The position numbers and the translations under genes are program-made. A stretch of DNA of 16,227 nucleotides from Gemmatimonadota bacterium (GTDB lineage Bacteria > GCA-2686955): assembly GCA_002686955.1 (NCBI GenBank), contig NYZA01000126.1, positions 1-16,227 on the forward strand, written 5' to 3'. The notes below the pieces were generated by a model. It searched no databases. It had not been told where the DNA came from and was given only the letters and a program-made list of their open reading frames with translations. Positions 1-16,227 of the stretch are shown here, piece after piece. How positions within the stretch are numbered: position 1 is the first letter of the stretch; every line of letters starts with the position of its first letter.

Positions 1-3000
1 GGGCGAGACGATCACGCGCGATGCCATCAAGGCTATGCGAGAGGCCGGCGTCGAACAGGTTTCGATCCTGAACACCGACTCCCCCGGCGACCTCGAAGTC
101 CTCAAGAACACCCTGGCCAAGGACCCCTGCGAAGACGAGTCGTCGGCCCTGGTGAAGATCTACAACATCTTGCGACCGGGAGACCAGGCGAGCGTCGAGA
201 CCGCCCGCGCGCTCCTGGAGAGGCTCTTCTTCAATCCGAAGCGATACGACCTCGGCGAGGTGGGTCGGCACCGCGTGAACAACCGGCTGGCCCTCGACAT
301 CCCCGACGATCAGGCGGTTCTGTGCAACGAGGATCTGATCGCGATCGTTCGGTATTTGCTTCGCTTGCGGGCCGGTGGTGGCGAGATCGACGATATCGAC
401 CATCTCGGCAATCGGCGGATACGGTCGGTCGGCGAGCTCTTGGCTCAGCAGCTTTCCACCGGGCTCTCCCGCATGGCGCGAACGATTCGCGAGCGGATGG
501 CGCTGCAAGACTCCGATACGATCACCCCATACGACCTGATCAACGCGCGAACGATCTCATCGGTCGTATCCACGTTCTTCGGCTCGAGCCAGCTCTCCCA
601 GTTCATGGATCAGGTGAATCCGCTCGGCGAGCTCACGAACAAGCGCCGCCTCTCGGCCCTGGGCCCCGGCGGCCTCACCCGGGATCGCGCAGGGATCGAG
701 GTCCGCGATGTACACCACACCCACTACGGGCGGATGTGCACGATCGAGACCCCGGAAGGACCGAATATCGGCCTGATCACCTCGCTGTGCACCTACACGC
801 GTGTGAACGCATTCGGCTTCCTGGAGACCCCTTACAGAAAGGTGGTCGACGGGGTCGTCACGAATGAGATCGAGCATCTCTCGGCCGACAAGGAAGATCT
901 GTACACGATCGCTCAGGCGAACGCGCCGCTCGAAGGGGACGGCCGCTTCAGCAATCCCCTCGTTCGCGCCCGTCGCCGCGGCGAGTACATCGTGGCCCCG
1001 GTCGACCAGATCGACTACATGGACGTCGCTCCGATCCAGATCGTTTCCGTCGCCGCGGCTCTGATCCCCTTCCTCGAGCACGACGACGCGAATCGGGCGC
1101 TGATGGGCTCGAATATGCAGCGGCAGGCGGTGCCCTTGATGACCACCGAAGCCCCGCTCGTGGGCACCGGCATGGAACGGAAGGCCGCGGTCGACTCCGG
1201 AAGTGTCGTGATCGCCAGACGGGGCGGGACCGTCGGCTTCGTCGATGCCGACCGGATCGTCATCGAAGTGAGCGACAAGGAGCCGATCCCCGAAGGCGAG
1301 ATCTTCGATTGGAGCTCGCGCGACGAGTACGAGCTCAAGAAGTTCCGCAAGTCGAACCAGGACACCTGCATCAACGAGCGGCCGAAGGTGGAGGTCGGGC
1401 AGACAGTGGTTGCGGGCCAGATCATCGCCGACGGCCAGTCGATCGATGACGGCGAGCTGGCGCTCGGCAAGAACATCCTCGTCGCTTTCATGCCCTGGAA
1501 CGGTCACAACTTCGAGGACGCGATCGTGGTGAGCGAACGCGTCGTCAAGGACGATGTGTTCACCTCGATCCATATCATCGAAATGGAGCTGCAGGTTCGC
1601 GATACCAAGCGCGGCCAGGAAGAGATCACGCGCGAGATTCCGAACGTGGCGGACGACGCGGTCCGGAGTCTCGACGACGACGGCATCATCGTGATCGGAG
1701 CGGAGGTCCATCCCGGCGACATACTGGTGGGCAAGGTGACCCCGAAGGGAGAGACCGAGCTCACGCCCGAGGAGCGTCTGCTGCGCGCGATCTTCGGCGA
1801 AAAGGCGGGCGATGTGCGCGATGCATCGCTCAAGGCACCGACCGGGATGACCGGAACGGTGGTCGACGTCAAGGTGTTCTCGCGCCGCGAACGCGACGAG
1901 CGGATGAAGCGAGAGATCGGCAAGCGGGTCGCCGTGCTCAAGTCGCAGCACGAGGAGCGGGTCGCGGCGATCCGCCAAATCCGTGACCAGCAGCTCATGG
2001 CGTTGCTGCGAGGCAAAACCGTTCAGGACATGCAGGATCCGCGGACCGGTCGGCGCATCGTGCCGCGGGGCAAGAAGCTCCTGGTCGAGACCTTGAAAGG
2101 GATCGATTTCGACACCCTGATCCTCGACGCGCCACTGGTCACCTCCGACGCGGCCAACGCCCGTGCCGGATCGATCGGGCGCCTCTATCGGCGGAAGCTC
2201 GACAGCCTCGAAGACCGCCTGGAGCGGGAGATCGAGAAGGCGAATCGGGGGGATGAGCTGCCGCCCGGAATCGTCAAACTGGTCAAGGTCTATGTGGCCC
2301 GCAAGAGAACCCTCTCCGTGGGCGACAAGATGGCGGGCCGCCACGGGAACAAGGGTGTCGTATCGAAGATCGTCCCGGTCGAAGATATGCCCTATCTGGT
2401 CAACGGCACGGCGGTCGACATCGTCCTCAATCCGCTCGGTGTTCCCTCCCGTATGAACCTGGGCCAGATCCTCGAAACTCACCTCGGGTGGGCCGCGCGA
2501 GAGCTCGGCGTGAAGGTCGCCTGTCCCGTCTTCGACGGGCCGAAAGAGAGCGATATCAAGGAGGCGCTCGAAGAGGCCGGTTTGCCGGTCCACGGGCGAA
2601 CGACCCTCTACGACGGCCACACCGGAGACGCTTTCGACGACGAAGTGACGGTGGGTCAGATCTACATGCTCAAGCTCTCGCACCTCGTCGACGACAAGAT
2701 CCACGCCCGATCGATCGGACCGTACTCGCTGGTGACGCAGCAACCGCTGGGCGGCAAGGCCCAGTTCGGCGGGCAGCGTTTCGGAGAGATGGAGGTCTGG
2801 GCGCTCGAAGCGTACGGTGCCGCCTACGCCCTGCAGGAACTTCTGACCGTGAAGTCGGATGACGTAGCCGGGCGCTCGAAGATCTATGAGGCGATCGTGA
2901 AGGGGGAGAATCCTCCGGAACCGGGCATCCCCGAATCGTTCAACGTGCTGGTGAAAGAGCTCCAGTCGTTGGGCTTGAACGTCCAACTTCTGTCCAAGAA

Positions 3001-3013
3001 CGGCCGATCCTGA
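1..3013 (+). CDS. rpoB: RNA polymerase subunit beta, C-terminal part (5' end outside the window start)
   Basis: This is the C-terminal ~1003 codons of the beta subunit, which forms one pincer of core RNA polymerase and holds the rifamycin pocket. The frame is open from base 2, so the M at 35 is internal and not a start. Visible in order: the [10 protein letters not shown] motif (about 397-426), the rifampicin region [13 protein letters not shown] with ALGPGGL (about 575-675), [10 protein letters not shown] (about 748-777), [12 protein letters not shown] (about 1489-1520), VGKVTPKGE (about 1726-1752), [12 protein letters not shown] (about 2321-2356) and the C-terminal [21 protein letters not shown] (about 2749-2810). 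The long lineage-specific inserts of the enterobacterial protein are not seen. The stop is TGA at 3011-3013. The missing N-terminus is at the other end of the window (15432-16227); merging the shared 8 bases gives 3801 nt, 1266 aa. Two residues in the rifampicin region are unusual (see findings). Confidence 0.98.
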
Positions 3014-3042
3014 TCGCGGGATCGACGCATCGAACTCCCGAC

Positions 3043-3059
3043 CGGCCCGATGCGGGCCG
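3043..3059 (+). other. GC-rich hairpin between rpoB and rpoC
   Basis: The arms CGGCCCG and CGGGCCG pair perfectly (7 bp) around an ATG triloop. The hairpin ends 5 nt before the rpoC ribosome binding site. No T-run follows, so it is not an intrinsic terminator. It could tune ribosome access or be a processing site; that is inference. Confidence 0.45.
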
Positions 3060-3077
3060 CCCATGGAGGGAATCGAA

Positions 3078-7285
<4,208 letters not shown>

Positions 7286-7289
<4 letters not shown>

Positions 7290-7314
7290 CACGGCTGAGC
7301 GACGCATATATCCT
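7286..7314 (+). promoter_or_regulatory. Candidate sigma70 promoter for the str genes, overlapping the rpoC stop
   Basis: A perfect -35 TTGACA at 7286-7291 contains the rpoC stop codon TGA (7287-7289). After a 17-bp spacer comes TATCCT (7309-7314), matching 4 of 6 positions of the -10 consensus including the most conserved T, A and final T. Transcription would start near 7320, giving a leader of about 70 nt before rpsL. A separate promoter for rpsL-rpsG-fusA-tuf is known in several bacteria. The match is by eye only. Confidence 0.5.
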
Positions 7315-7350
7315 CGAAGGTCTGTACCAAACCCATTTGGAAACGCATGT

Positions 7351-7372
7351 TTCGCCCTCGAGCGAGGGCGAA
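7351..7372 (+). promoter_or_regulatory. Perfect leader hairpin before rpsL
   Basis: The arms TTCGCCCTC (7351-7359) and GAGGGCGAA (7364-7372) pair over 9 bp around the tetraloop GAGC. The hairpin starts about 30 nt after the predicted transcription start and ends 8 nt before the rpsL ribosome binding site AGGAGGG (7381-7387). No T-run follows, so it is not a terminator. It is well placed for translational control or mRNA stabilisation of the str transcript. Confidence 0.5.
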
Positions 7373-7391
7373 GCTGCTTCAGGAGGGCGTC

Positions 7392-7766
7392 TTGCCCACG
7401 ATCAGTCAGCTCGTCCGCAAAGGGCGCAAGAAGGTTCACAAGAAGACGAAGTCGCCGGCTCTGCAGTCCTGCCCCCAGCGACGGGGCGTTTGCACGCGGG
7501 TCCACACGAGCACACCGAAGAAGCCGAACTCGGCTCTCAGAAAGGTGGCCCGCGTCCGTCTCACCAACGGGATCGAAGTAACGGCCTACATTCCGGGCGA
7601 GGGGCACAACCTCCAGGAGCACTCGATCGTCATGATCCGTGGCGGGCGTGTGAAGGACTTGCCTGGCGTTCGTTACCACGTGATCCGCGGAACACTCGAC
7701 ACCGCGGGCGTCGATGGGCGCACCCAGAGCCGCTCGAAGTACGGAACGAAGAGACCGAAGAAGTAA
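7392..7766 (+). CDS. rpsL: 30S ribosomal protein S12
   Basis: S12 lies at the interface side of the 30S subunit near the decoding centre and sets decoding accuracy. The sequence [13 protein letters not shown] begins at TTG 7392, 4 nt after a very strong AGGAGGG. Upstream codons in this frame have no family similarity and cover the leader hairpin, so the TTG is the start. The product is 124 aa, the usual length. The decoding-site segments [11 protein letters not shown] and [14 protein letters not shown] are intact, so the classic streptomycin-resistance positions (Lys in PKKP, Lys in VKDLP) are wild type. The C-terminus [10 protein letters not shown] is typical. It is first of the str block, 102 nt after rpoC, and rpsG follows after 67 nt. 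Confidence 0.97.
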
Positions 7767-7800
7767 ATGCACGAATGGCCTCCCGAAGAGGGCGGCAAAA

Positions 7801-7819
7801 GGGCGCGATTCGCGCACCC
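7801..7819 (+). promoter_or_regulatory. Hairpin in the rpsL-rpsG spacer
   Basis: GGGCGCG (7801-7807) pairs with CGCG (7811-7814) and CCC (7817-7819) around an ATT loop, with a 2-nt CA bulge on the 3' arm. It ends 4 nt before the rpsG ribosome binding site GGAG (7824-7827). In E. coli the rpsL-rpsG spacer holds the S7 autoregulatory site; equivalence here is only suggested by position. Confidence 0.35.
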
Positions 7820-7833
7820 CAACGGAGTAAGAG

Positions 7834-8304
7834 ATGCCTCGACGCAGACGGGCCGCCAAGCGTGAGATCGTTCCCGATCCCAAGTGCGGCAGCACCCTGG
7901 TCACACAATTCGTCAACTGCCTGATGCTCGATGGAAAGAAGAGCAAGGCGGAGCACGCGTTCTACGGTGCCCTCGACCAGATCGAAGAGGAGACCGGCCA
8001 GAGCGGACTGACCTTGTTCAAAGAGGCTGTCAGCAAAGTGAGGCCGGTGCTCGAGGTGAAATCCCGGCGCGTGGGTGGCTCCACCTATCAGGTGCCGGTC
8101 GAGGTGCGCCCCGATCGCCGCACCGCTCTGGCGATTCGGTGGTTGATCAACTTCAGTCGAGCGCGCAACGGGCGATCGATGTCGGACAAGCTGGCAGCCG
8201 AGCTGATCGCGGCGTCGAATGGCGAGGGGCTCGCCGTCAAGAAGCGAGAAGATACCCACAGGATGGCAGAGGCCAACAAGGCGTTCGCGCACTACCGCTG
8301 GTAG
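7834..8304 (+). CDS. rpsG: 30S ribosomal protein S7
   Basis: S7 nucleates assembly of the 30S head and contacts the E and P sites. The product is 156 aa, the usual length, starting [20 protein letters not shown] and containing [42 protein letters not shown] and the C-terminal [17 protein letters not shown] at 7824-7827 lies 6 nt before the ATG. It sits between rpsL and fusA as in the standard str operon. Its last codons and its stop TAG are part of a predicted RNA three-way junction (8282-8338), which is unusual and may affect termination or the expression of fusA downstream. Confidence 0.97.
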
Positions 8305-8338
8305 TAGCGAGCCACCCAATGAGGGTGGCCTGCGAACG
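8282..8338 (+). promoter_or_regulatory. Predicted RNA three-way junction spanning the rpsG stop codon
   Basis: A closing stem pairs CGTTCGC (8282-8288) with GCGAACG (8332-8338), 7 bp. It encloses two perfect hairpins. One is ACTACC/GGTAGT (8291-8296 with 8300-8305, loop GCT), containing the rpsG stop TAG. The other is GCCACCC/GGGTGGC (8311-8317 with 8323-8329, loop AATGA). All three helices are free of mismatches. Elongating ribosomes at the rpsG stop would disrupt it. S7 recognises a multi-helix junction in 16S rRNA, so an S7 feedback site is possible; that is inference. Confidence 0.45.
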
Positions 8339-8356
8339 ATAGATTCCAGATGGAGG

Positions 8357-8390
8357 GTCGATCCGGGCGATGTCCGGATCGGCTTTTTTT
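8357..8390 (+). terminator. Intrinsic (rho-independent) terminator immediately before fusA
   Basis: The 5' arm CGATCCGG (8359-8366) pairs perfectly with CCGGATCG (8374-8381). A T-G wobble and a G-C pair extend this to 10 bp (8357-8366 with 8374-8383), closed by a 7-nt loop. It runs directly into seven T residues (8384-8390). The structure has every feature of a rho-independent terminator, and it is the only such hairpin plus T-run seen in the window. The fusA ATG follows 5 nt later at 8395, so it may be an attenuator between rpsG and fusA. Confidence 0.75.
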
Positions 8391-8394
8391 GGCG

Positions 8395-10473
8395 ATGGCA
8401 ACACCGGTGCCCTTGGAGAAGATCCGCAATATCGGGATCATGGCGCATATCGATGCGGGGAAGACGACCGCCACCGAGCGGATCCTCTTCTACACCGGCC
8501 GGCTCCACCGCATGGGAGAGGTCCACGATGGCGGCGCCACGATGGACTGGATGGAGCAGGAGAAGGAACGGGGCATCACCATCACCTCGGCGGCGACGAC
8601 GTGCTGGTGGCGGGATCATCAGATCAACATCATCGACACGCCGGGCCACGTGGATTTCACCGCCGAGGTGGAGCGCAGCCTCAGAGTGCTCGATGGAGCG
8701 GTCGCGGTCTTCTGCGCCGTCGGCGGAGTGGAACCTCAGTCCGAGACCGTCTGGCGCCAGGCCGACAAATACGGCGTGCCCAGGATCGCCTTCGTCAACA
8801 AGATGGACCGTGTAGGGGCGGATTTCGACCGTGTCGTCGCAATGATGCGCGATCGCCTCGGAGCGCACGCGGTGCCGATCCAGATCCCGGTGGGCCGTGG
8901 CGACGATTTCGACGGCATCATCGATTTGATCACGATGAAGGCCCGCTACTACGACCACGCGACACGAGGCGCCGAATTCGAGGAGAGCGCGATCCCCGCC
9001 GAGTTCGCCACCGCGGCCGAGGAGGCGCGGGAAGCGATGCTCGAGGCCTGCGCGGATCAGGACGACACTCTGATGGAACGATTCCTCGACGGTGAGGCGA
9101 TCGGCGTCGAGGAGAGCATCCGCGTGCTCCGAGGAGCGACCGTCGCTGGTGAGATCGTGCCGGTACTCTGCGGCTCCGCTTTCAAGAACAAGGGGGTGCA
9201 GCGACTGCTCGATTGCATCGTGCGGCTTCTGCCCGCGCCGACCGATGTTCCCCCCGTCGAGGGCTTCGATCCGACGGAGGAGACGCGCAAGATCGAGCGT
9301 CCACCCGAGCTGGACGCCCCTTTCTCAGCGGTGGCCTTCAAGCTGATGAGCGATCCCTATGTCGGAAAACTGACCTTCATTCGGGTCTACAGCGGTGTTC
9401 TCGAAAGCGGATCGTCGGTATTCAACCCGAGCCGAGGCAAGAAGCAGCGGATCGGCCGCTTGCTGCACATGCACGCCAACAAGCGAGAAGAGATACAGAC
9501 GGTTCGAGCGGGCGACATCGTGGCGGCGGTCGGACTGAAGCAGGTGCGGACCGGAGACACCCTTTGTGACCACGATTCACCGATCGTGCTCGAGGCGATG
9601 GACTTCCCCGAGCCGGTGATCAAGGTCGCGATCGAGCCGAAGACCAGAGCCGACCAGGAGAATCTGGCGAAGACGCTGTCGAAGCTCTCCGAAGAGGATC
9701 CGACCTTCCATGTCGGTTTCGACGAAGAGACCGGCCAGACGATCATCAGCGGAATGGGGGAGCTTCACCTGGAGATCCTCGTCGATCGCATGCTGCGGGA
9801 GTTCAACGTCGATGCGAATGTGGGTCAGCCACAGGTCGCCTACAAAGAGACGATTCGGGCCGTGGTCGAGCACAGAACCAAGTTCCAGAAGCAGACAGGT
9901 GGGCACGGTCAGTATGCCGACGTGAGAATCCGCTTCGGACCTTCGGAGCCGGGCAAGGGTTTTGTTTTCGAGGACCGGATCGTCGGGGGCTCGATACCGA
10001 AGGAGTACATCCCCGCGGTCCGCAAGGGCGTTGTGGAGGCGATGCGGAACGGCGTCGTGGCGGGCTATCCGATGGTCGACCTGAAGGCCGAGCTCTACGA
10101 CGGAAGCCACCATGAGGTGGACTCGTCCGAGATGGCGTTTCAGATCGCCGGCTCGCTCGCGTTGCGAGAGGCCGCCAAAAAAGCGTCTCCGGTGATTCTC
10201 GAACCGATCATGCGAGTCGAAGCGGTGACGCCGGAGGATTATCTCGGCGATGTGATGGGCGATCTGAGCAGCCGGCGGGGCAAGATCTCCGGTATCGATC
10301 CCCGCGCCGACAGCCAGGCGGTCTCGGCGACCGTTCCGCTCTCGGAGATGTTCGGCTATGCCACGCGCCTGAGATCGCTGACTCAGGGGCGGGCGAGCTT
10401 CAGCATGGAATTCGACCGATACATGGAGGTTTCCCCGTCGGTCGCGGAAGAGATCATGGCGGGGAAGAAATAA
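8395..10473 (+). CDS. fusA: Elongation factor G (translocation GTPase)
   Basis: EF-G drives tRNA-mRNA translocation and, with RRF, ribosome recycling. The GTPase motifs are all present: AHIDAGKTT (17-25), [11 protein letters not shown] (R59), DTPGHVDF (D81) and NKMD (N135), with GSAFKN later. Domains III-V follow, including [20 protein letters not shown] and the C-terminal [26 protein letters not shown]. The product is 692 aa from ATG 8395 ([20 protein letters not shown]), normal for the family. The start is somewhat uncertain: no clear Shine-Dalgarno precedes 8395, only the terminator's T-run and GGCG. The in-frame TTG 8389 has a weak GGAT upstream, and ATG 8350 would put the terminator hairpin inside the coding region. 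Family alignment favours 8395. Confidence 0.96.
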
Positions 10474-10602
10474 GTTGCGCGGGCGAGGGGTGCGGGATCA
10501 TACTCACGCTTTTGTCGCCCAAAACTATGGGTCTAGGAACGGCGAACTCCACCGGGCCAGGTGGTAAGTGCGCGCCGCCGATCGCATCAGGAGACAGGCG
10601 TC
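10474..10602 (+). promoter_or_regulatory. fusA-tuf spacer with a possible weak promoter and two short stems
   Basis: The 129-nt spacer contains TTGCGC (10475-10480), 18 bp, then CATACT (10499-10504), a 3/6 and 4/6 match to -35 and -10. GGGCGA (10481-10486) can pair with TCGCCC (10515-10520), and CCACC (10549-10553) with GGTGG (10560-10564). AGGAG at 10589-10593 is the tuf ribosome binding site. In an intact chromosome this flank belongs to the fusA-side tuf copy. Confidence 0.3.
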
Positions 10603-11793
10603 ATGGCCAAGGAAAAGTTTGAGAGGACGAAGCCGCACGTCAATGTGGGCACGATCGGTCACGTCGATCACGGCAAGACGACATTGACGGCGGCGATCAC
10701 CGCGGCGCTCGCGAAGTCGGATTTGGCCGAGTTCCGTTCCTTCGATTCGATCGACAACGCGCCAGAGGAGAAGGCGCGTGGGATCACGATCGCGACGGCG
10801 CACGTGGAGTATGAGACCGACAACCGTCACTACGCTCACGTGGACTGCCCCGGTCACGCGGATTATGTGAAGAACATGATCACGGGGGCGGCGCAGATGG
10901 ACGGCGCGATTCTGGTGGTTTCGGCGGCCGACGGCCCGATGCCTCAGACGCGCGAGCACGTTCTTCTGGCTCGCCAGGTGAACGTTCCGTACATCGTGGT
11001 GTTTTTGAACAAGGCCGACATGGTGGACGACGAGGAGCTGTTGGAGCTGGTGGAGCTCGAGGTTCGCGAGCTTTTGTCGGAGTACAAGTTCCCCGGGGAC
11101 GACATTCCCGTGATCACGGGTTCGGCGCTGAAGGCGATGGAGAGTCCGGACGACGAGTCTGCGATTCAGTGCATCCAGGAGCTGATGGCCGCGGTGGACG
11201 AGTACATTCCGATACCGGAGCGGGAGATCGATCTACCCTTCCTGATGCCGGTGGAGGATGTGTTTTCGATTACCGGTCGCGGAACGGTCGGCACGGGCCG
11301 CATCGAACGCGGCAAGATCACGACGGGCGAGAAGGTCGAGATCGTGGGGATTCGCGAGACACGCGAGACGACGGTGACGGGCGTGGAGATGTTCCGCAAG
11401 CTTCTCGACTACGGTGAGGCGGGCGACAACGTCGGTCTGCTTCTTCGCGGCGTCGACAAGAAGGAGCTCGAGCGAGGCATGGTGCTGTCGAAGCTGAAGA
11501 GCATCACGCCGCACACGAAGGCGGCGGCCGAGGTGTATGTGCTGAAGAAGGAAGAGGGCGGCCGGCACACGCCCTTCTTCCCCGGCTATCGTCCCCAGTT
11601 CTTCTTCCGGACGACCGATGTGACCGGCTCGATCGAGCTCCCCGAGAACGTCGAGATGGTGATGCCGGGCGACAATATCAACATGACGATCGACCTGATC
11701 ACCCCGATCGCGATGGAGGAGGGGCTTCGCTTCGCCATCCGAGAGGGTGGGCGAACGGTCGGAGCCGGCGTCATTACCAAGATCCACGAGTAA
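10603..11793 (+). CDS. tuf: Elongation factor Tu (aminoacyl-tRNA delivery GTPase)
   Basis: EF-Tu-GTP carries aminoacyl-tRNA to the ribosomal A site. The product is 396 aa from ATG 10603; AGGAG lies 9 nt upstream, and an earlier in-frame GTG at 10561 is rejected because [20 protein letters not shown] is the family N-terminus. G motifs: GHVDHGKT (19-26), [26 protein letters not shown] (D81 onward), NKAD (136-139) and GSALK. Domain II has [13 protein letters not shown], with Gly230 where Val or Ala is usual in sequences I recall. The C-terminus GVITKIHE is typical. Its stop TAA overlaps the rpmG ribosome binding site. Many bacteria have two direct tuf copies, one after fusA and one before rpmG-trpT-secE. 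Here one copy does both jobs, suggesting that two copies have been merged. Confidence 0.97.
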
Positions 11794-11806
11794 GGAGACA
11801 CGACCC

Positions 11807-11965
11807 GTGGCTTCGGCACGAACCAAGGTGATTCTGGCGTGTAACGAGTGCAAGCGGCGCAACTACACGACCACGAAGAACAAGAAGATTCACCCGGACC
11901 GCCTGGAGCACCGCCACTATTGTGGCTGGTGTCGCACCCACACAACCCACAAAGAAACGCGTTGA
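11807..11965 (+). CDS. rpmG: 50S ribosomal protein L33, zinc-ribbon form
   Basis: L33 is a small protein of the large subunit near the E site. GTG 11807 starts a 52-aa product, [15 protein letters not shown] onward. AGGAG (11793-11797) overlaps the tuf stop and lies 9 nt upstream. Cysteines C12, C15, C39 and C42 form two CxxC pairs, so this is the zinc-binding type, not the cysteine-free type. The basic segment between them ([20 protein letters not shown]) is typical. Only 13 nt separate it from tuf, so they are probably co-transcribed. The order rpmG-tRNA-Trp-secE-nusG is common in bacteria. Confidence 0.94.
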
Positions 11966-11968
11966 TTT

Positions 11969-11983
11969 CGCTCCGGCGGAGCG
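11969..11983 (+). other. Hairpin between rpmG and tRNA-Trp
   Basis: CGCTCC (11969-11974) and GGAGCG (11978-11983) pair perfectly around GGC. It lies just after the rpmG stop and 9 nt before the tRNA 5' end. No T-run follows, so read-through into the tRNA is expected. It might protect the mRNA 3' end after RNase P cuts; that is inference. Confidence 0.4.
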
Positions 11984-11992
11984 GCGCGACAC

Positions 11993-12069
11993 AGGCCAGT
12001 AGCTCAATTTGGCAGAGCACCGGTCTCCAAAACCGGGGGCTGGGGGTTCGAGTCCCTCCTGGCCTGCCA
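11993..12069 (+). tRNA. trpT: tRNA-Trp (anticodon CCA), CCA end encoded
   Basis: A full cloverleaf can be drawn. The acceptor stem pairs AGGCCAG (11993-11999) with CTGGCCT (12059-12065). The D stem pairs GCTC with GAGC. The anticodon stem CCGGT/ACCGG (12020-12024 with 12032-12036) closes the 7-nt loop CTCCAAA with anticodon CCA at 12027-12029. The variable loop is 5 nt. The T stem GGGGG/CCCTC has one G-T pair and the loop TTCGAGT. Discriminator G12066 is followed by an encoded CCA. There is no intron. G at the discriminator and the CCA anticodon are the expected tryptophan identity elements. It is embedded between rpmG and secE, so it must be released from a mixed mRNA-tRNA transcript. Confidence 0.97.
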
Positions 12070-12074
12070 GATTT

Positions 12075-12109
12075 CCGGAACTCCCGGGCACCCTTTCCGG
12101 CGCTCGGGA
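12075..12109 (+). other. Competing stems between tRNA-Trp and secE
   Basis: Two overlapping pairings are possible: CCGGAA (12075-12080) with TTCCGG (12095-12100), or TCCCG (12082-12086) with CGGGA (12105-12109). They cannot both form as simple nested stems. The second would cover the GGGA that may serve as the secE ribosome binding site. This may be chance in GC-rich DNA. Confidence 0.25.
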
Positions 12110-12117
12110 TCCGGTGA

Positions 12118-12333
12118 ATGCGACGGGAATCGGCTGTGATCGAGAATCTGAAGAAGTACATCGAGGATGTCAGCGCGGAGATGCGCCGGGTGACCTGGCC
12201 GAAGCCGGAAGAGCTTCGAGGCCAGACGATCCTGGTGTTCATCGTCGCGTTCATGCTGACCGTCTTCATCGGCGGGGTCGACGTGGTCCTGTCCGCGATC
12301 ATGAACACGCTGCATGGGATTCTGGGTTCCTAG
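12118..12333 (+). CDS. secE: Preprotein translocase subunit SecE
   Basis: SecE clamps the SecY channel in the inner membrane. The product is 71 aa, the short single-helix form: an amphipathic N-terminal part (IENLKKYIEDVSAEMRRV), the signature TWPKPEEL, then one membrane segment at about residues 37-62. The start is uncertain: ATG 12118 and GTG 12136 (which would give a 65-aa protein beginning at the Val before IENLKKY) both have a GGGA about 7-8 nt upstream. The stop is TAG at 12331-12333. It is followed after 67 nt by nusG, the standard pairing; the two genes are linked by position, not by function. Confidence 0.93.
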   Translation: MRRESAVIENLKKYIEDVSAEMRRVTWPKPEELRGQTILVFIVAFMLTVFIGGVDVVLSAIMNTLHGILGS

Positions 12334-12348
12334 GCTCGACTCGGAGCC
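12333..12348 (+). other. Hairpin at the secE stop
   Basis: GGCTC (12333-12337) and GAGCC (12344-12348) pair around a 6-nt loop, beginning at the last base of the secE stop codon. No T-run follows. It is too short to be a convincing terminator. Confidence 0.3.
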
Positions 12349-12400
12349 CTTCCCAACGCCGCAACACCCGCCGAACCGACCCACCGCAACGGAGAGACCC

Positions 12401-12973
12401 GTGGAGCACGATCAGCTAGACACGATGGAACAACAGGAAGAGCCGACCGAAAGGCCCTTTGCCTGGTACGTCGTGCACACGTACTCCGGTCACGAGAGCA
12501 AGGTCAAGACTCTGATCGAGGGCGAGGCCCGGCTGCAGGGCTTCGATCACGACTTCGGGCGCGTGCTGATCCCCACCGAAGAGGTGGTGGAGCTGAAGCG
12601 CACGACTCAGAGGAAGCTCTTCCCCAGCTACATCATGATCGAGATGCGCCTGACCCCCGAGACGCAGCGATTGGTGAAGAACACGCCGGGCGTGACCGAC
12701 TTCGTCGGCCAAGGAGGCAAGGCGAGGCCGGTGCCCCAGCACGAAGTCGATCGCATTCTGCACCGAATCGAGAGCGAGACCGAGCGCGCGCGCGTGTCGG
12801 TTCCCTTCCGCAAGGGCGAAAGCGTCATCGTGATCGACGGCCCTTTCACGGAGTTCCAGGGTGTGATCGAAGAGGTGAACCACGAGCGGATGAAGGTGAA
12901 GGTGCTCGTTTCGATCTTCGGGCGCCCAACACCGGTCGAGCTCGACTACCGGCAGGTAAAAAGTATCGCCTGA
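12401..12973 (+). CDS. nusG: Transcription termination/antitermination factor NusG
   Basis: NusG binds the RNA polymerase clamp, suppresses pausing, and links polymerase to Rho or to ribosomal protein S10. The NGN domain begins at WYVVHTYSGHESKVK and includes the RKLFPSYIMIEM strand and VGQGGKARPVP. The KOW domain is KGESVIVIDGPFTEFQGVIEEV through the C-terminus. GTG 12401 is chosen because GGAGAG (12391-12396) lies just upstream; this gives 190 aa with a short acidic N-terminal extension before the NGN domain. An in-frame ATG at 12425 is possible. The longer reading upstream to 12314 overlaps secE and has no family similarity. It follows secE and precedes rplK, as in most bacteria. Confidence 0.95.
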   Translation: MEHDQLDTMEQQEEPTERPFAWYVVHTYSGHESKVKTLIEGEARLQGFDHDFGRVLIPTEEVVELKRTTQRKLFPSYIMIEMRLTPETQRLVKNTPGVTDFVGQGGKARPVPQHEVDRILHRIESETERARVSVPFRKGESVIVIDGPFTEFQGVIEEVNHERMKVKVLVSIFGRPTPVELDYRQVKSIA

Positions 12974-13001
12974 GCGATTCCTCCCCTTATTGGAGAGGGC
13001 G

Positions 13002-13020
13002 CCGGGTTCACAGAACCGGG
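13002..13020 (+). promoter_or_regulatory. Hairpin in the nusG-rplK leader
   Basis: GGTTC (13005-13009) pairs with GAACC (13013-13017) around ACA. A G-G mismatch and two further C-G pairs extend the stem. It lies 32 nt before the rplK ribosome binding site. In E. coli the rplK leader is where L1 binds to repress the L11-L1 pair. Whether this stem is such a site is unknown. No convincing promoter was seen in the 89-nt spacer. Confidence 0.3.
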
Positions 13021-13062
13021 AGGCCTCGCGGCCGCTTGCACCGGAAACGATAGGAGCCGATG

Positions 13063-13494
13063 ATGGCCAAGAAGATCGTCGGACAGATCAAGCTCCAGAT
13101 TCCCGCCGGAGGGGCAACACCCGCTCCGCCGGTCGGCCCCGCGCTGGGTCAGCACGGGGTGAATATCATGGAGTTCTGCAAGGCGTTCAACGCGAAGACC
13201 CAACAACAGCAGGGGCTGATCATCCCGGTAGTGATCTCCGTATATGCGGATCGCTCCTTCTCTTTCATCACGAAGAGCCCTCCCGCCGCGGTGCTGATCA
13301 AGCGCGCCGTCGGGCTCGCCAAGGCCTCCCCCGAGCCGAATCGGACGAAGGTGGGAACCATCACGCGCGCCCAGTGCGAAGAGATCGCCAAACTGAAATG
13401 GGAAGATCTCAACGCCAACGATATGGATGCGGCGGTGGAGATGATCCGTGGAACCGCACGGAGCATGGGAATCTTGTCGGGGAGTGAAGGCTGA
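13063..13494 (+). CDS. rplK: 50S ribosomal protein L11
   Basis: L11 forms the base of the stalk (GTPase-associated centre) with 23S rRNA helices 43/44, and is needed for stringent-response sensing by RelA. The product is 143 aa: [19 protein letters not shown], then the proline-rich [18 protein letters not shown] thiostrepton-site segment, and the C-terminal RNA-binding domain ending [15 protein letters not shown]. Two ATGs are adjacent. AGGAG (13052-13056) is 6 nt before 13063 but only 3 nt before 13060, so 13063 is favoured. Its TGA overlaps the rplA ATG by one base (TGATG), so the two are probably translationally coupled. Confidence 0.96.
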
Positions 13495-14195
13495 TGAAGC
13501 ACGGAAAGAACTACCGGAACGCGAACGAGCGGATCGATGCGGCCAACCGCTACGGTCTGTTCGAAGCGATCGAGATGGTGAAATCGCTGGCCTTCGCCGG
13601 CTTCGATGAGACCATTGAGGTCTGCACTCACCTGGGTGTGAACCCACGGCACGCGGATCAACAGGTTCGCGGCACTGTGGTGCTTCCGCACGGAACCGGC
13701 AAGTCGGTGAGGGTGCTGGTATTCGCCGTCGGCGAGAAGGCGGCGGAGGCCGAGGCGGCCGGCGCCGATTTCGTGGGCGACGACGAGCTCGTCAAGAAGG
13801 TGCAGGATGGCTGGCTCGATTTCGATGCCGCGATCGCCACTCCCGACATGATGCCGAAAGTCGGGAGACTGGGGCGGGTTCTCGGACCGCGCGGTCTGAT
13901 GCCGAATCCGAAGGTCGGCACCGTGACGGCCGACGTGACCAAGGCCGTGACCGATTTCAAGGCGGGGAAGATCGAGTACCGCGTCGATCGGGGCTCCAAC
14001 GTGAATGTGCCGGTCGGCAAGGTCTCCTTCGATGTGGAGCAGCTCCGCGAAAACTCCCTCGCATTCTTGCGGGAGCTGGCGCGTGCCAGGCCTTCGTCAG
14101 TCAAGGGCACCTATCTGCGTTCCGCGACCCTGGCCTCCACGATGGGCCCCGGCATCCACCTCGACACCCAAGAAATCCTCAACCTCGCCAAGTGA
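13494..14195 (+). CDS. rplA: 50S ribosomal protein L1
   Basis: L1 forms the mobile stalk that guides deacylated tRNA out of the E site, and in many bacteria represses its own rplK-rplA mRNA. The product is 233 aa, the usual length. Visible motifs are [55 protein letters not shown] (the family signature) and the C-terminal [18 protein letters not shown]. The start ATG 13494 shares its A with the rplK stop. It is followed by a 40-nt spacer and rplJ. Confidence 0.97.
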
Positions 14196-14198
14196 GCA

Positions 14199-14214
14199 TC
14201 GGGATTCTACCCGA
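14199..14214 (+). other. Short hairpin in the rplA-rplJ spacer
   Basis: TCGGG (14199-14203) and CCCGA (14210-14214) pair around ATTCTA. The spacer is only 40 nt, too short for the long L10-binding leader known upstream of rplJ in other bacteria, unless that structure extends back into rplA. Confidence 0.3.
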
Positions 14215-14235
14215 GCGCCTGGCATCGGAGCATCG

Positions 14236-14763
14236 ATGGCACGCCCAGAAAAAGCAGCAGCGGTCGCTGAGCTCACTGAGAAGTTCAAGGCCCACGATAA
14301 TGTGTACCTGGCGGATTTCACGGGTCTGAATGTCGCGGACACGACCGAGCTACGCCGCCTGTTGCGCGAAGCCGACGTCGAGTACCGGGTGGTGAAGAAC
14401 ACCTTGGCTAGGCGCGCGGCCGACGACGCCGGTGTCGATGGAGGGATCGCCGATCTCTTCGTCGGGCCGACCGCCGTGGCCTTCGGCCACAGCGACAGTG
14501 TTGCGCCGGCCCGTGTGCTGGCCGACTTCCGCAACAAACATGAGAAGGAGCTTCCGGTCATAAAGGGCGGAGTGCTCGCCGGGCACTTCGTCGGCCCGGA
14601 CGATGTACAACGCATCGCCAAGCTCCCCAACCGCGATCAACTTCTCGGCCAACTCGCGGGGGCACTCTCCGCGCCCATGACCGGGTTCGCCGGCGCGATG
14701 CAAGCGGTTTTCCGCTCGTTCGCGAACGTGTTGACACAGGTGCAGGAGCAGAAGACAGATTAG
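14236..14763 (+). CDS. rplJ: 50S ribosomal protein L10
   Basis: L10 anchors the L7/L12 dimers to the stalk base and commonly represses its own mRNA. ATG 14236 has GGAG 5 nt upstream (14227-14230). The product is 175 aa: MARPEKAAAVAELTEKFK, LADFTGLNVADTTELRR, YRVVKNTLARRA, then the DLFVGPTAVAFG region and a long C-terminal helix that should bind L12 dimers (from about residue 135). The length is normal. A TTGACA occurs near its 3' end (14731-14736) but without a good -10. Confidence 0.96.
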   Translation: MARPEKAAAVAELTEKFKAHDNVYLADFTGLNVADTTELRRLLREADVEYRVVKNTLARRAADDAGVDGGIADLFVGPTAVAFGHSDSVAPARVLADFRNKHEKELPVIKGGVLAGHFVGPDDVQRIAKLPNRDQLLGQLAGALSAPMTGFAGAMQAVFRSFANVLTQVQEQKTD

Positions 14764-14766
14764 TAA

Positions 14767-14803
14767 CCGACACCCGTCGGTCCCGTCGGCGCATCGTCGC
14801 CGA
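14767..14803 (+). other. Two tandem hairpins between rplJ and rplL
   Basis: CCGAC/GTCGG (14767-14771 with 14776-14780, loop ACCC) is followed by TCGGCG/CGCCGA (14786-14791 with 14798-14803, loop CATCGT). No T-run follows. L12 is needed in several copies per ribosome, so structures here could favour rplL translation or mRNA stability; that is inference. Confidence 0.35.
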
Positions 14804-14874
14804 AACCGGCCCAGAAGACCCTCACGGTCGACAGCAAGGCGCGTGTGGGCGGGGCATCAAGGAGTGACAACGAA

Positions 14875-15267
14875 ATGGCTACGCTGACTAATGAAGAGAT
14901 CCTCGACGCAGTCGCCGAGAAGACCGTGCTGGAGCTTTCGGACTTGATCAAGGGCTTCGAAGAGAAGTTCGGTGTGACTGCCGCTGTTCCGATGGCGGGT
15001 GTACCGATGGCGACAGCCGGCGCCGGTGAGGGCGAAGGCGGCGCGGTGGAAGAGCAGACCGAGTTCGACGTCGTCCTGACCGCCGCGGGGCCGAAGAAGA
15101 TCCAGTGCATCAAAGAGGTGCGCGCGATCACGGGTCTCGGTCTCAAAGAGGCCAAGGCGCTGGTGGACGACGCACCGAAGCCGGTCAAGGAGGCCGTGTC
15201 CAAGGAAGAGGCCGACGAGTTCAAGTCGAAGCTCGAAGAGGTCGGGGCGACCGTCGAGATCAAGTGA
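14875..15267 (+). CDS. rplL: 50S ribosomal protein L7/L12
   Basis: L7/L12 is the multi-copy stalk protein that recruits and stimulates EF-G, EF-Tu and the other translational GTPases. The product is 130 aa. The N-terminal dimerisation helices ([21 protein letters not shown]) are followed by an Ala/Gly/Pro hinge (about residues 35-55) and the C-terminal domain with [20 protein letters not shown] and [28 protein letters not shown] (14859-14864) lies 10 nt before ATG 14875. The 111-nt spacer from rplJ and the 164-nt spacer to rpoB are both structured. Confidence 0.97.
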
Positions 15268-15290
15268 CTCCGCCCAGGCCCGAAGAGAAG

Positions 15291-15400
15291 GGGCGATGCT
15301 GCCGCGGCAACGGGGTATCGATCGCCCATCACTCCGCTTCCTACCGGCGTGTAGGGAGGCGGGGTCGCCTGCTTTCGCGATCCTTAGTGCGAGTGCACTA
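15291..15400 (+). promoter_or_regulatory. Structured rplL-rpoB spacer: three hairpins, candidate attenuator or RNase III region
   Basis: Three stems lie one after another. GGGCGAT (15291-15297) pairs with ATCGCCC (15321-15327) and encloses the small palindrome TGCCGCGGCA. CTCCGCTTCCTAC (15332-15344) pairs with 15351-15364 over about 13 bp with one bulge and two G-T pairs. TAGTGC (15385-15390) pairs with GCACTA (15395-15400) around GAGT. None has a T-run. In E. coli the rplL-rpoB spacer holds a partial terminator and an RNase III site that lower rpoBC output relative to ribosomal proteins. The arrangement here fits that role by position. Confidence 0.45.
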
Positions 15401-15431
15401 GCACCAATTCTCTCCCAGTGAGGGGGATGCC

Positions 15432-16227
15432 TTGGCGAACTTCAAGATCGATCCGACCACGGGACGGCGAGACTACTCGAAGATCGAGCCGGTTCTCGAA
15501 ATGCCGAATCTGCTCGAGATCCAGATGACGAGCTACGGAGATTTCCTCCAGCGCGATCTGGCTCCCGAGGAGCGGAAGGACATCGGCCTGCAGGCCGTGT
15601 TCAAGGAGATCTTCCCGATCTCCGATGCGCATTCCAATTTCACGCTGGAATTCCTCGGCTACTCCGCGGGAGAGCCGAAGTACTCCATCCGCGAATGCCA
15701 AGATCGGGACATGACCTATGCCGTTCCTCTCAAGGCCGCGCTCAGGCTGATCGTTCGCGAGACCGTCGATGACCAAAAGCGGGTGAAGGACATCATCCAG
15801 CAGGAGGTCTATCTCGGCGAGCTGCCGCTGATCACCGAGAAGGGCACCTTCATCATCAACGGTGCCGAGCGGGTCATCGTTTGCCAGCTCCATCGCTCTC
15901 CGGGTGTCTATTTCGGCGACGAGATTCACGCCAACGGCAAGCGGCTCTTCTCCGGGCGGATCATTCCGAATCGGGGATCTTGGGTGGAGTTCAGCCTCGA
16001 CGCCCGCGACGTGATGTATGTCCACATCGACCGGAAGAGGAAGATCCCGGTGACCGTGCTCTTGCGCGCTCTGGGCTACTCGACCGACGACGATGTTCTG
16101 CGTCTCTTCAGCGAATTCGAGGAGGTGAAGGTCGACGAAGCCCCCGATGAGGAGCTCCACGGACGGATCACCACCGATGCGGTGGTCGATACGAACACCG
16201 GCGAGATCCTGATCGAGCAGGGCGAGA
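15432..16227 (+). CDS. rpoB: RNA polymerase subunit beta, N-terminal part (runs off the window end)
   Basis: The first ~265 residues of the beta subunit: the N-terminal helix IEPVLEMPNLLEIQMTSYGDFL, the protrusion segment QEVYLGELPLITEKGTFIINGAERVIV, the QLHRSPGVYF motif, and the start of the lobe. TTG 15432 is the start (MANFKIDPTTGRRDYSK), 5 nt after a G-rich AGGGGG. An ATG at 15427 sits in that gap but is out of frame. The frame is open to the window end (last full codon 16224-16226). It is not a second truncated gene: the last 8 bases repeat the first 8, and the fused reading continues without gap or overlap into the piece at 1-3013. The joined sequence aligns gaplessly across the junction with the E. 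coli beta segment DESTGEL onward, as I recall it. Confidence 0.97.
   Translation, partial: MANFKIDPTTGRRDYSKIEPVLEMPNLLEIQMTSYGDFLQRDLAPEERKDIGLQAVFKEIFPISDAHSNFTLEFLGYSAGEPKYSIRECQDRDMTYAVPLKAALRLIVRETVDDQKRVKDIIQQEVYLGELPLITEKGTFIINGAERVIVCQLHRSPGVYFGDEIHANGKRLFSGRIIPNRGSWVEFSLDARDVMYVHIDRKRKIPVTVLLRALGYSTDDDVLRLFSEFEEVKVDEAPDEELHGRITTDAVVDTNTGEILIEQGE
16220..16227 (+). repeat. 8-base terminal direct repeat shared by both window ends
   Basis: GGGCGAGA at 16220-16227 is identical to bases 1-8. Both copies are in the same frame of rpoB (third base of a Gln codon, then Gly-Glu). This is the residual overlap of a circular molecule that was opened, not a biological repeat. Confidence 0.8.

What the first reader, a model, noticed from the sequence alone, without database searches (positions are those of the whole stretch)
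1..16227. The window is a closed circle (about 16,219 bp) opened inside rpoB
The window begins in the C-terminal part of rpoB and ends in its N-terminal part. Bases 16220-16227 equal bases 1-8. Merging them gives 3801 nt, exactly 1267 codons including the stop, with no missing or repeated residue; butt-joining the ends without the overlap shifts the frame. A linear chromosome would need a second rpoB broken at exactly the same codon. So the molecule is circular, or one unit of a tandem repeat. The 8-base overlap is shorter than an assembler k-mer, so some overlap may have been trimmed.
Basis: partly seen in the sequence, partly recalled or inferred. Interest (0 to 1): 0.75.

Follow-up and report, generated by a model that had tools for sequence, protein, structure and literature searches.

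The report
False circle from duplicated tuf genes
The sequence does close into a 16.2 kb loop, but almost certainly because the assembler merged the two near-identical EF-Tu genes that bracket this stretch of an ordinary bacterial chromosome, so it is very probably an assembly artefact and not a new circular molecule; a loop with the same genes sits in public databases as a 'plasmid'.

Summary
Bases 1-8 equal 16220-16227, and merging them gives a 1,266-aa RpoB that aligns without gaps to the closest relative's RpoB. The inference 'so the molecule is circular or a tandem unit' does not follow. The unusual join is not at rpoB but at tuf: fusA-tuf (tufA side) runs into tuf-rpmG-tRNA-Trp-secE (tufB side). 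The same genome holds a second tuf end on contig C204 (54/54 identical residues) followed by rpsJ-rplC-rplD. In 20 other genomes two tuf genes lie on one contig in the same direction at a median spacing of 16,246 bp (18 of 20 between 15.3 and 16.6 kb). The loop is 16,219 bp: one tufB-to-tufA interval. A k-mer graph of an intact relative collapses into this loop. A second assembly (G295) shows the same fusA-tuf-rpmG hybrid together with both missing arms. The loop carries no recognisable replication gene; its longest non-coding gap is 164 bp. A 16,762-bp circle with nearly the same genes, in the same order, is deposited as Shewanella baltica plasmid pSbal03. Best explanation: repeat collapse at duplicated tuf. 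A real excision circle or tandem duplication is not excluded without reads.

The parts
16220..16227 (.). 8-nt overlap with bases 1-8 (GGGCGAGA); true continuity of rpoB
15432..16227 (+). rpoB, N-terminal part (TTG start)
1..3013 (+). rpoB, C-terminal part
3078..7289 (+). rpoC
7347..7766 (+). rpsL (S12)
7834..8304 (+). rpsG (S7)
8398..10473 (+). fusA (EF-G); normal left neighbour of tufA
10603..11793 (+). tuf (EF-Tu): collapsed or hybrid gene, left flank of tufA, right flank of tufB; the join that makes the loop
11627..11793 (+). stretch of tuf also present at the end of contig C204 (second tuf): 5 synonymous differences plus TAA/TAG stop, followed there by rpsJ
11807..11965 (+). rpmG (L33); normal right neighbour of tufB
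11993..12069 (+). tRNA-Trp (cca)
12136..12333 (+). secE
12425..12973 (+). nusG
13063..13494 (+). rplK (L11)
   Evidence: orthologues in order in relatives
13494..14195 (+). rplA (L1)
14236..14763 (+). rplJ (L10)
14875..15267 (+). rplL (L7/L12)

Best explanation
The window is a circularly permuted copy of one chromosomal interval, tufB-rpmG-trnW-secE-nusG-rplKAJL-rpoBC-rpsLG-fusA-tufA, closed only on paper. The chromosome has two directly repeated, near-identical tuf genes about 16.2 kb apart. The assembler merged them, so the path leaving fusA through tuf re-entered rpmG instead of going on to rpsJ, and the contig ends fell at a point inside rpoB. In the cell the DNA most likely runs tRNAs-tufB-[this interval]-tufA-rpsJ-rplC. 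Shown: the second tuf end with rpsJ, the spacing match, collapse in a graph built from a relative, and the same hybrid with both missing arms in G295. Inferred: that this happened here, and that the tufB left flank exists in this genome but is missing from the bin.
For: Second tuf end on C204 followed by rpsJ-rplC-rplD, identical over 54 residues and ending 46 bp past the last difference, inside identical sequence. Loop 16,219 bp against a median tuf-tuf spacing of 16,246 bp in 20 genomes. Intact order tufB-...-fusA-tufA-rpsJ in relatives. Same-family G001 has two separate tuf ends, one on rpmG and one on rpsJ. k-mer graph of the G038 locus collapses to a loop of exactly the spacing. G295 shows the hybrid contig plus tRNA-tuf and tuf-rpsJ contigs. 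No second rpoB. No room for a replicon.
Against: The tufB left arm is not in the bin, as could be expected at 84.5% completeness. The cut inside rpoB and the 8-nt overlap are not what a plain graph circle with a k-mer overlap would give. A plain graph would leave tuf as a separate branch node, so the assembler must have resolved it wrongly or dropped branches. Assembler and reads are unknown.
Confidence: 0.93

Rival explanations
1. Tandem duplication or amplification: unequal crossing-over between tufA and tufB on sister chromosomes gives tufB-X-tuf(hybrid)-X-tufA, so the fusA-tuf-rpmG junction exists in some cells.
For: The predicted junction is exactly the one seen. tuf copies recombine in Salmonella (PMC5485169) and direct repeats 16 kb apart are good substrates (general knowledge).
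Against: No read depth to support it. The same sequence follows from collapse, and a consensus assembly would need the duplication to be common. C204 shows the normal tufA exit.
Confidence: 0.04
2. A real extrachromosomal circle excised by recombination between the two tuf genes, perhaps as in the S. baltica pSbal03 record.
For: pSbal03 is deposited as a closed 16,762-bp circle with nearly the same gene content, in the same order, and its genes were reported absent from the OS155 chromosome (PMC3478194). Excision would leave the same hybrid tuf.
Against: Core protein and tRNA genes fill about 94% of the circle; longest gap 164 bp, no replication gene and no iteron-like array. A non-replicating circle with the only rpoB copy would be lethal when lost. 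Same hybrid plus all arms in G295 favours a general assembly cause.
Confidence: 0.02
3. This lineage has one tuf, truly placed between fusA and rpmG, and C204 is contamination.
For: Only one full tuf is in the bin.
Against: With one rpoB, a linear order cannot place the str operon both after rpoC and before secE. The C204 tuf end encodes the identical 54 residues. The same-family genome has both tuf ends.
Confidence: 0.005

Closest known systems
secE-rpoBC-str-S10 operon cluster with adjacent tufB operon (PMC8046335)
   Same: All genes of the window belong to it; tRNA-Thr/Tyr/Gly-Thr precede tufB in the ancestral cluster, and rpmG is reported as ancestral in the secE operon
   Different: In the window the cluster is closed on itself at tuf instead of running on to S10
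Shewanella baltica OS155 plasmid pSbal03 (NC_009037.1)
   Same: Circular record of 16,762 bp, rpoB-rpoC-rpsL-rpsG-fusA-tuf-secE-nusG-rplK-rplA-rplJ-rplL with one tuf
   Different: Different phylum; no rpmG or tRNA-Trp listed; deposited as a finished plasmid; I could not inspect the OS155 chromosome
Contig C63 of genome G295
   Same: Hybrid fusA-tuf-rpmG contig of 15,959 bp with its ends in the rpoB/rpoC region
   Different: Most of rpoC lies elsewhere, and both missing tuf arms are present in that assembly
Serratia liquefaciens ATCC 27592 unnamed plasmid (NC_021742.1)
   Same: Chromosome-like rpoBC segment recorded as a closed circle bounded by a long repeat
   Different: Joined at rRNA operons, 44.1 kb, not at tuf

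Membership tests
Assembly collapse at duplicated tuf (false circle) | Loop length equals the tufB-to-tufA spacing | tested here: met
   16,219 bp against a median of 16,246 bp in 20 genomes
Assembly collapse at duplicated tuf (false circle) | A second tuf end with the other flank exists in the same assembly | tested here: met
   C204 tuf-rpsJ-rplC-rplD
Assembly collapse at duplicated tuf (false circle) | The tufB left arm (tRNA-tuf) is also found | tested here: not met
   Absent from the bin; genome 84.5% complete. Found in G295
Assembly collapse at duplicated tuf (false circle) | About 2x read depth on tuf only, 1x on loop and flanks | not testable with these tools
   No reads held
Plasmid or other autonomous replicon | Replication initiator or origin-like repeats | tested here: not met
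   All major ORFs are core genes; longest gap 164 bp; no iteron-like array
Excision circle or tandem duplication at tuf | fusA-tuf-rpmG junction present in physical DNA | not testable with these tools
   The same sequence is predicted by collapse; needs reads, long reads or PCR

The most novel reading that the evidence does not exclude
Recombination between the two direct tuf genes really releases or amplifies a 16-kb circle carrying the RNA polymerase and EF-G genes, here and in S. baltica OS155, as a reversible way of changing the dosage of the transcription-translation core.
Probability: 0.02. Interest if true: 0.85.

Novelty: not a real feature. Interest (0 to 1): 0.2.

Why it matters
It exposes a trap that can recur. 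Two direct tuf copies about 16 kb apart are common, so repeat collapse can give a tidy 'circular' contig with rpoBC, str and secE genes. A record with nearly this content, pSbal03, has been read as evidence for lateral transfer of ribosomal genes (PMC3478194), as a strain with plasmid-borne rpoBC (PMC6403173), and as the carrier of the commonest mobile resistance gene in sediments, 'strA' (PMC5812944), although its listed genes include no resistance gene, only rpsL, historically also called strA (my own knowledge). A simple check (one tuf between fusA and secE or rpmG, 15-17 kb) would flag such records.

Tried and rejected
Second rpoB in the genome: none. Chance 8-nt overlap: rejected by odds and homology. 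Search for the tufB left flank by tuf 5' DNA and by tRNAs: not in the bin. A genome-contig scan with nusG was wasted because I gave the wrong reading frame, so the organism could not be named. Relatives of a plasmid locus cannot be searched, so Shewanella chromosomes were not checked directly. G098:C366 also has fusA-tuf-rpmG, and that genome has a separate tuf-rpsJ contig, but its rpoC is followed by 6.8 kb without rpsL, so I count it only as a possible case. Literature searches for a tuf excision circle found none.

Full report
OBSERVATION. The window is the whole of contig C126 (16,227 bp) of a 270-contig, 84.5%-complete genome, G000. The terminal overlap is exactly 8 nt, the only suffix-prefix identity from 1 to 299 nt. 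Two random 8-mers of the window agree with probability about 4.5e-5. Merging the 8 nt gives 3,801 nt with a single stop; butt-joining breaks the frame. In the same-family genome G001 rpoB matches over residues 1-1265 at 85%, and across the join it reads [22 protein letters not shown], as the merged window does, with no gap. Pfam's Rpb2 domain 2 is cut exactly at the join, profile positions 1-78 and 79-190. The genome has one rpoB. So the two ends really are neighbours.

WHERE THE ODD JUNCTION IS. rpoB continuity is ordinary biology. The gene order is rpoB-rpoC-rpsL-rpsG-fusA-tuf-rpmG-tRNA-Trp-secE-nusG-rplK-rplA-rplJ-rplL-rpoB. In intact relatives (G016, G027, G038) the order is tRNAs-tufB-rpmG-tRNA-Trp-secE-nusG-rplKAJL-rpoB-rpoC-rpsL-rpsG-fusA-tufA-rpsJ-rplC, and G328 agrees for the protein genes. 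The window therefore has the left neighbour of tufA (fusA) and the right neighbour of tufB (rpmG) on one tuf. That join makes the loop.

THE SECOND TUF IS IN THE SAME GENOME. Contig C204 ends in the last 166 bp of another tuf: 54/54 identical residues and 97% DNA identity to the window's tuf, with five synonymous differences and a different stop codon. It then runs into rpsJ, rplC and rplD. The C204 end lies 46 bp beyond the last difference between the copies, inside identical sequence, which is where an assembly graph would branch. The left arm, tRNA-tufB, was not found: no second tuf 5' end is in the bin, and none of the 21 tRNAs found is Thr, Tyr or Gly, the tRNAs that precede tufB in relatives. 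The bin is incomplete, so this is a gap rather than a contradiction.

SIZE. In 20 genomes whose listed matches put two tuf genes on one contig in the same direction, the start-to-start distance has a median of 16,246 bp, and 18 of 20 lie between 15,255 and 16,634 bp; the loop is 16,219 bp. The two copies are 100% identical over 1,246 bp in G038, 99.6% over 1,219 bp in G016 and 84.6% over 1,192 bp in G027. A single-strand k-mer graph of the G038 locus at k from 31 to 141 falls into left flank, a two-copy tuf unitig of 1,246 bp, a loop and a right flank; loop plus tuf closes at 16,265 bp, the spacing. G027 stays one linear piece at k of 55 or more.

RECURRENCE. Among 40 contig stretches fetched from other genomes, chosen because a tuf lay near a contig start and therefore not a random sample, G295:C63 (15,959 bp) has rpoC(end)-rpsL-rpsG-fusA-tuf-rpmG-secE-...-rpoB, the same hybrid opened a little further along. 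That genome also has both other arms: C135 begins in the first 84 residues of tuf next to tRNA-Thr, Gly, Tyr and Thr genes, and C23 begins in the last residues of tuf followed by rpsJ. The closest relative G001 breaks in the same gene: C50 starts inside the tuf that precedes rpmG, C650 inside the tuf that precedes rpsJ. G171:C57 (16,666 bp) has a 93-nt terminal overlap that lies in tuf; a terminal-repeat rule would call it circular. G098 is a possible further case but ambiguous.

PRECEDENT. PLSDB holds NC_009037.1, Shewanella baltica OS155 plasmid pSbal03, a circular record of 16,762 bp with the same gene order (no rpmG listed) and a single tuf. A 2012 paper took it as a real plasmid and as evidence that these genes are laterally transferred; it reported the genes absent from the OS155 chromosome, the supposed insertion site next to the chromosomal tuf, and two tuf genes in most Shewanella strains (PMC3478194). 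A 2019 paper lists it among four proteobacterial strains with rpoBC on plasmids, the other six S. baltica strains having them on the chromosome (PMC6403173). A 2018 study reports strA on pSbal03 as its most abundant mobile resistance gene (PMC5812944). The Serratia liquefaciens 'plasmid' NC_021742.1 (44,107 bp) is a similar chromosome-like segment that closes through rRNA genes. I did not test whether either record is an artefact; the parallel suggests it. Because a finished Sanger genome should resolve a 1.2-kb repeat (my own knowledge), pSbal03 deserves a direct check.

MECHANISM AND RIVALS. Best supported is repeat collapse at tuf. Unequal crossing-over (tandem duplication) or excision would make the same junction and cannot be excluded without reads; tuf copies recombine in Salmonella (PMC5485169) and undergo gene conversion in 29 orders of 6 phyla (PMC6053082). 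Against a replicon: about 94% of the circle is core protein or tRNA genes, the longest gap is 164 bp, and there is no iteron-like array. What remains unexplained is why the contig was cut in rpoB and why the overlap is 8 nt. One possibility, by inference, is that the contig never was a graph circle but a linear misjoin rpoB(C)-...-tuf-...-rpoB(N) across the collapsed repeat, with an ordinary break in rpoB.

VERDICT. Observation confirmed; physical circularity not supported; very probably an artefact of a duplicated gene. Interest is low for the locus, with some value as a general warning.

Noticed in passing
L072 (NC_009037.1) 1-16762: Shewanella baltica OS155 plasmid pSbal03 is nearly the same 12-gene loop with one tuf; three papers treat it as a real plasmid. 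Likely the same tuf collapse, but not tested on the chromosome or reads.
   Followed up: partly
L071 (NC_021742.1) 1-44107: Serratia liquefaciens ATCC 27592 'plasmid' is a murB-tuf-rpoBC-thi-purHD segment with rRNA genes over the record ends, looking like a chromosomal rrn-to-rrn interval; the record carries about one and a half rRNA operons.
   Followed up: partly
plasmid hits: Twelve or so Clostridioides difficile records of about 97-150 kb, and Bacteroides, Legionella and Salmonella records of 39-141 kb, are labelled plasmids but carry rpoB and/or fusA.
   Followed up: no
L086 (G171:C57) 1-16666: Contig with a 93-nt terminal overlap that falls in tuf; a terminal-repeat rule would call this chromosomal interval a complete circle.
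   Followed up: partly
L075 (G098:C366) 1-14906: Possible second-type hybrid: rpsG-fusA-tuf-rpmG-...-rpoC, with another tuf-rpsJ on C402, but rpoC is not followed by rpsL on the contig.
   Followed up: partly
window 15432: rpoB appears to start with TTG and rpmG with GTG; the longest non-coding gap (164 bp) lies between rplL and rpoB.
   Followed up: no
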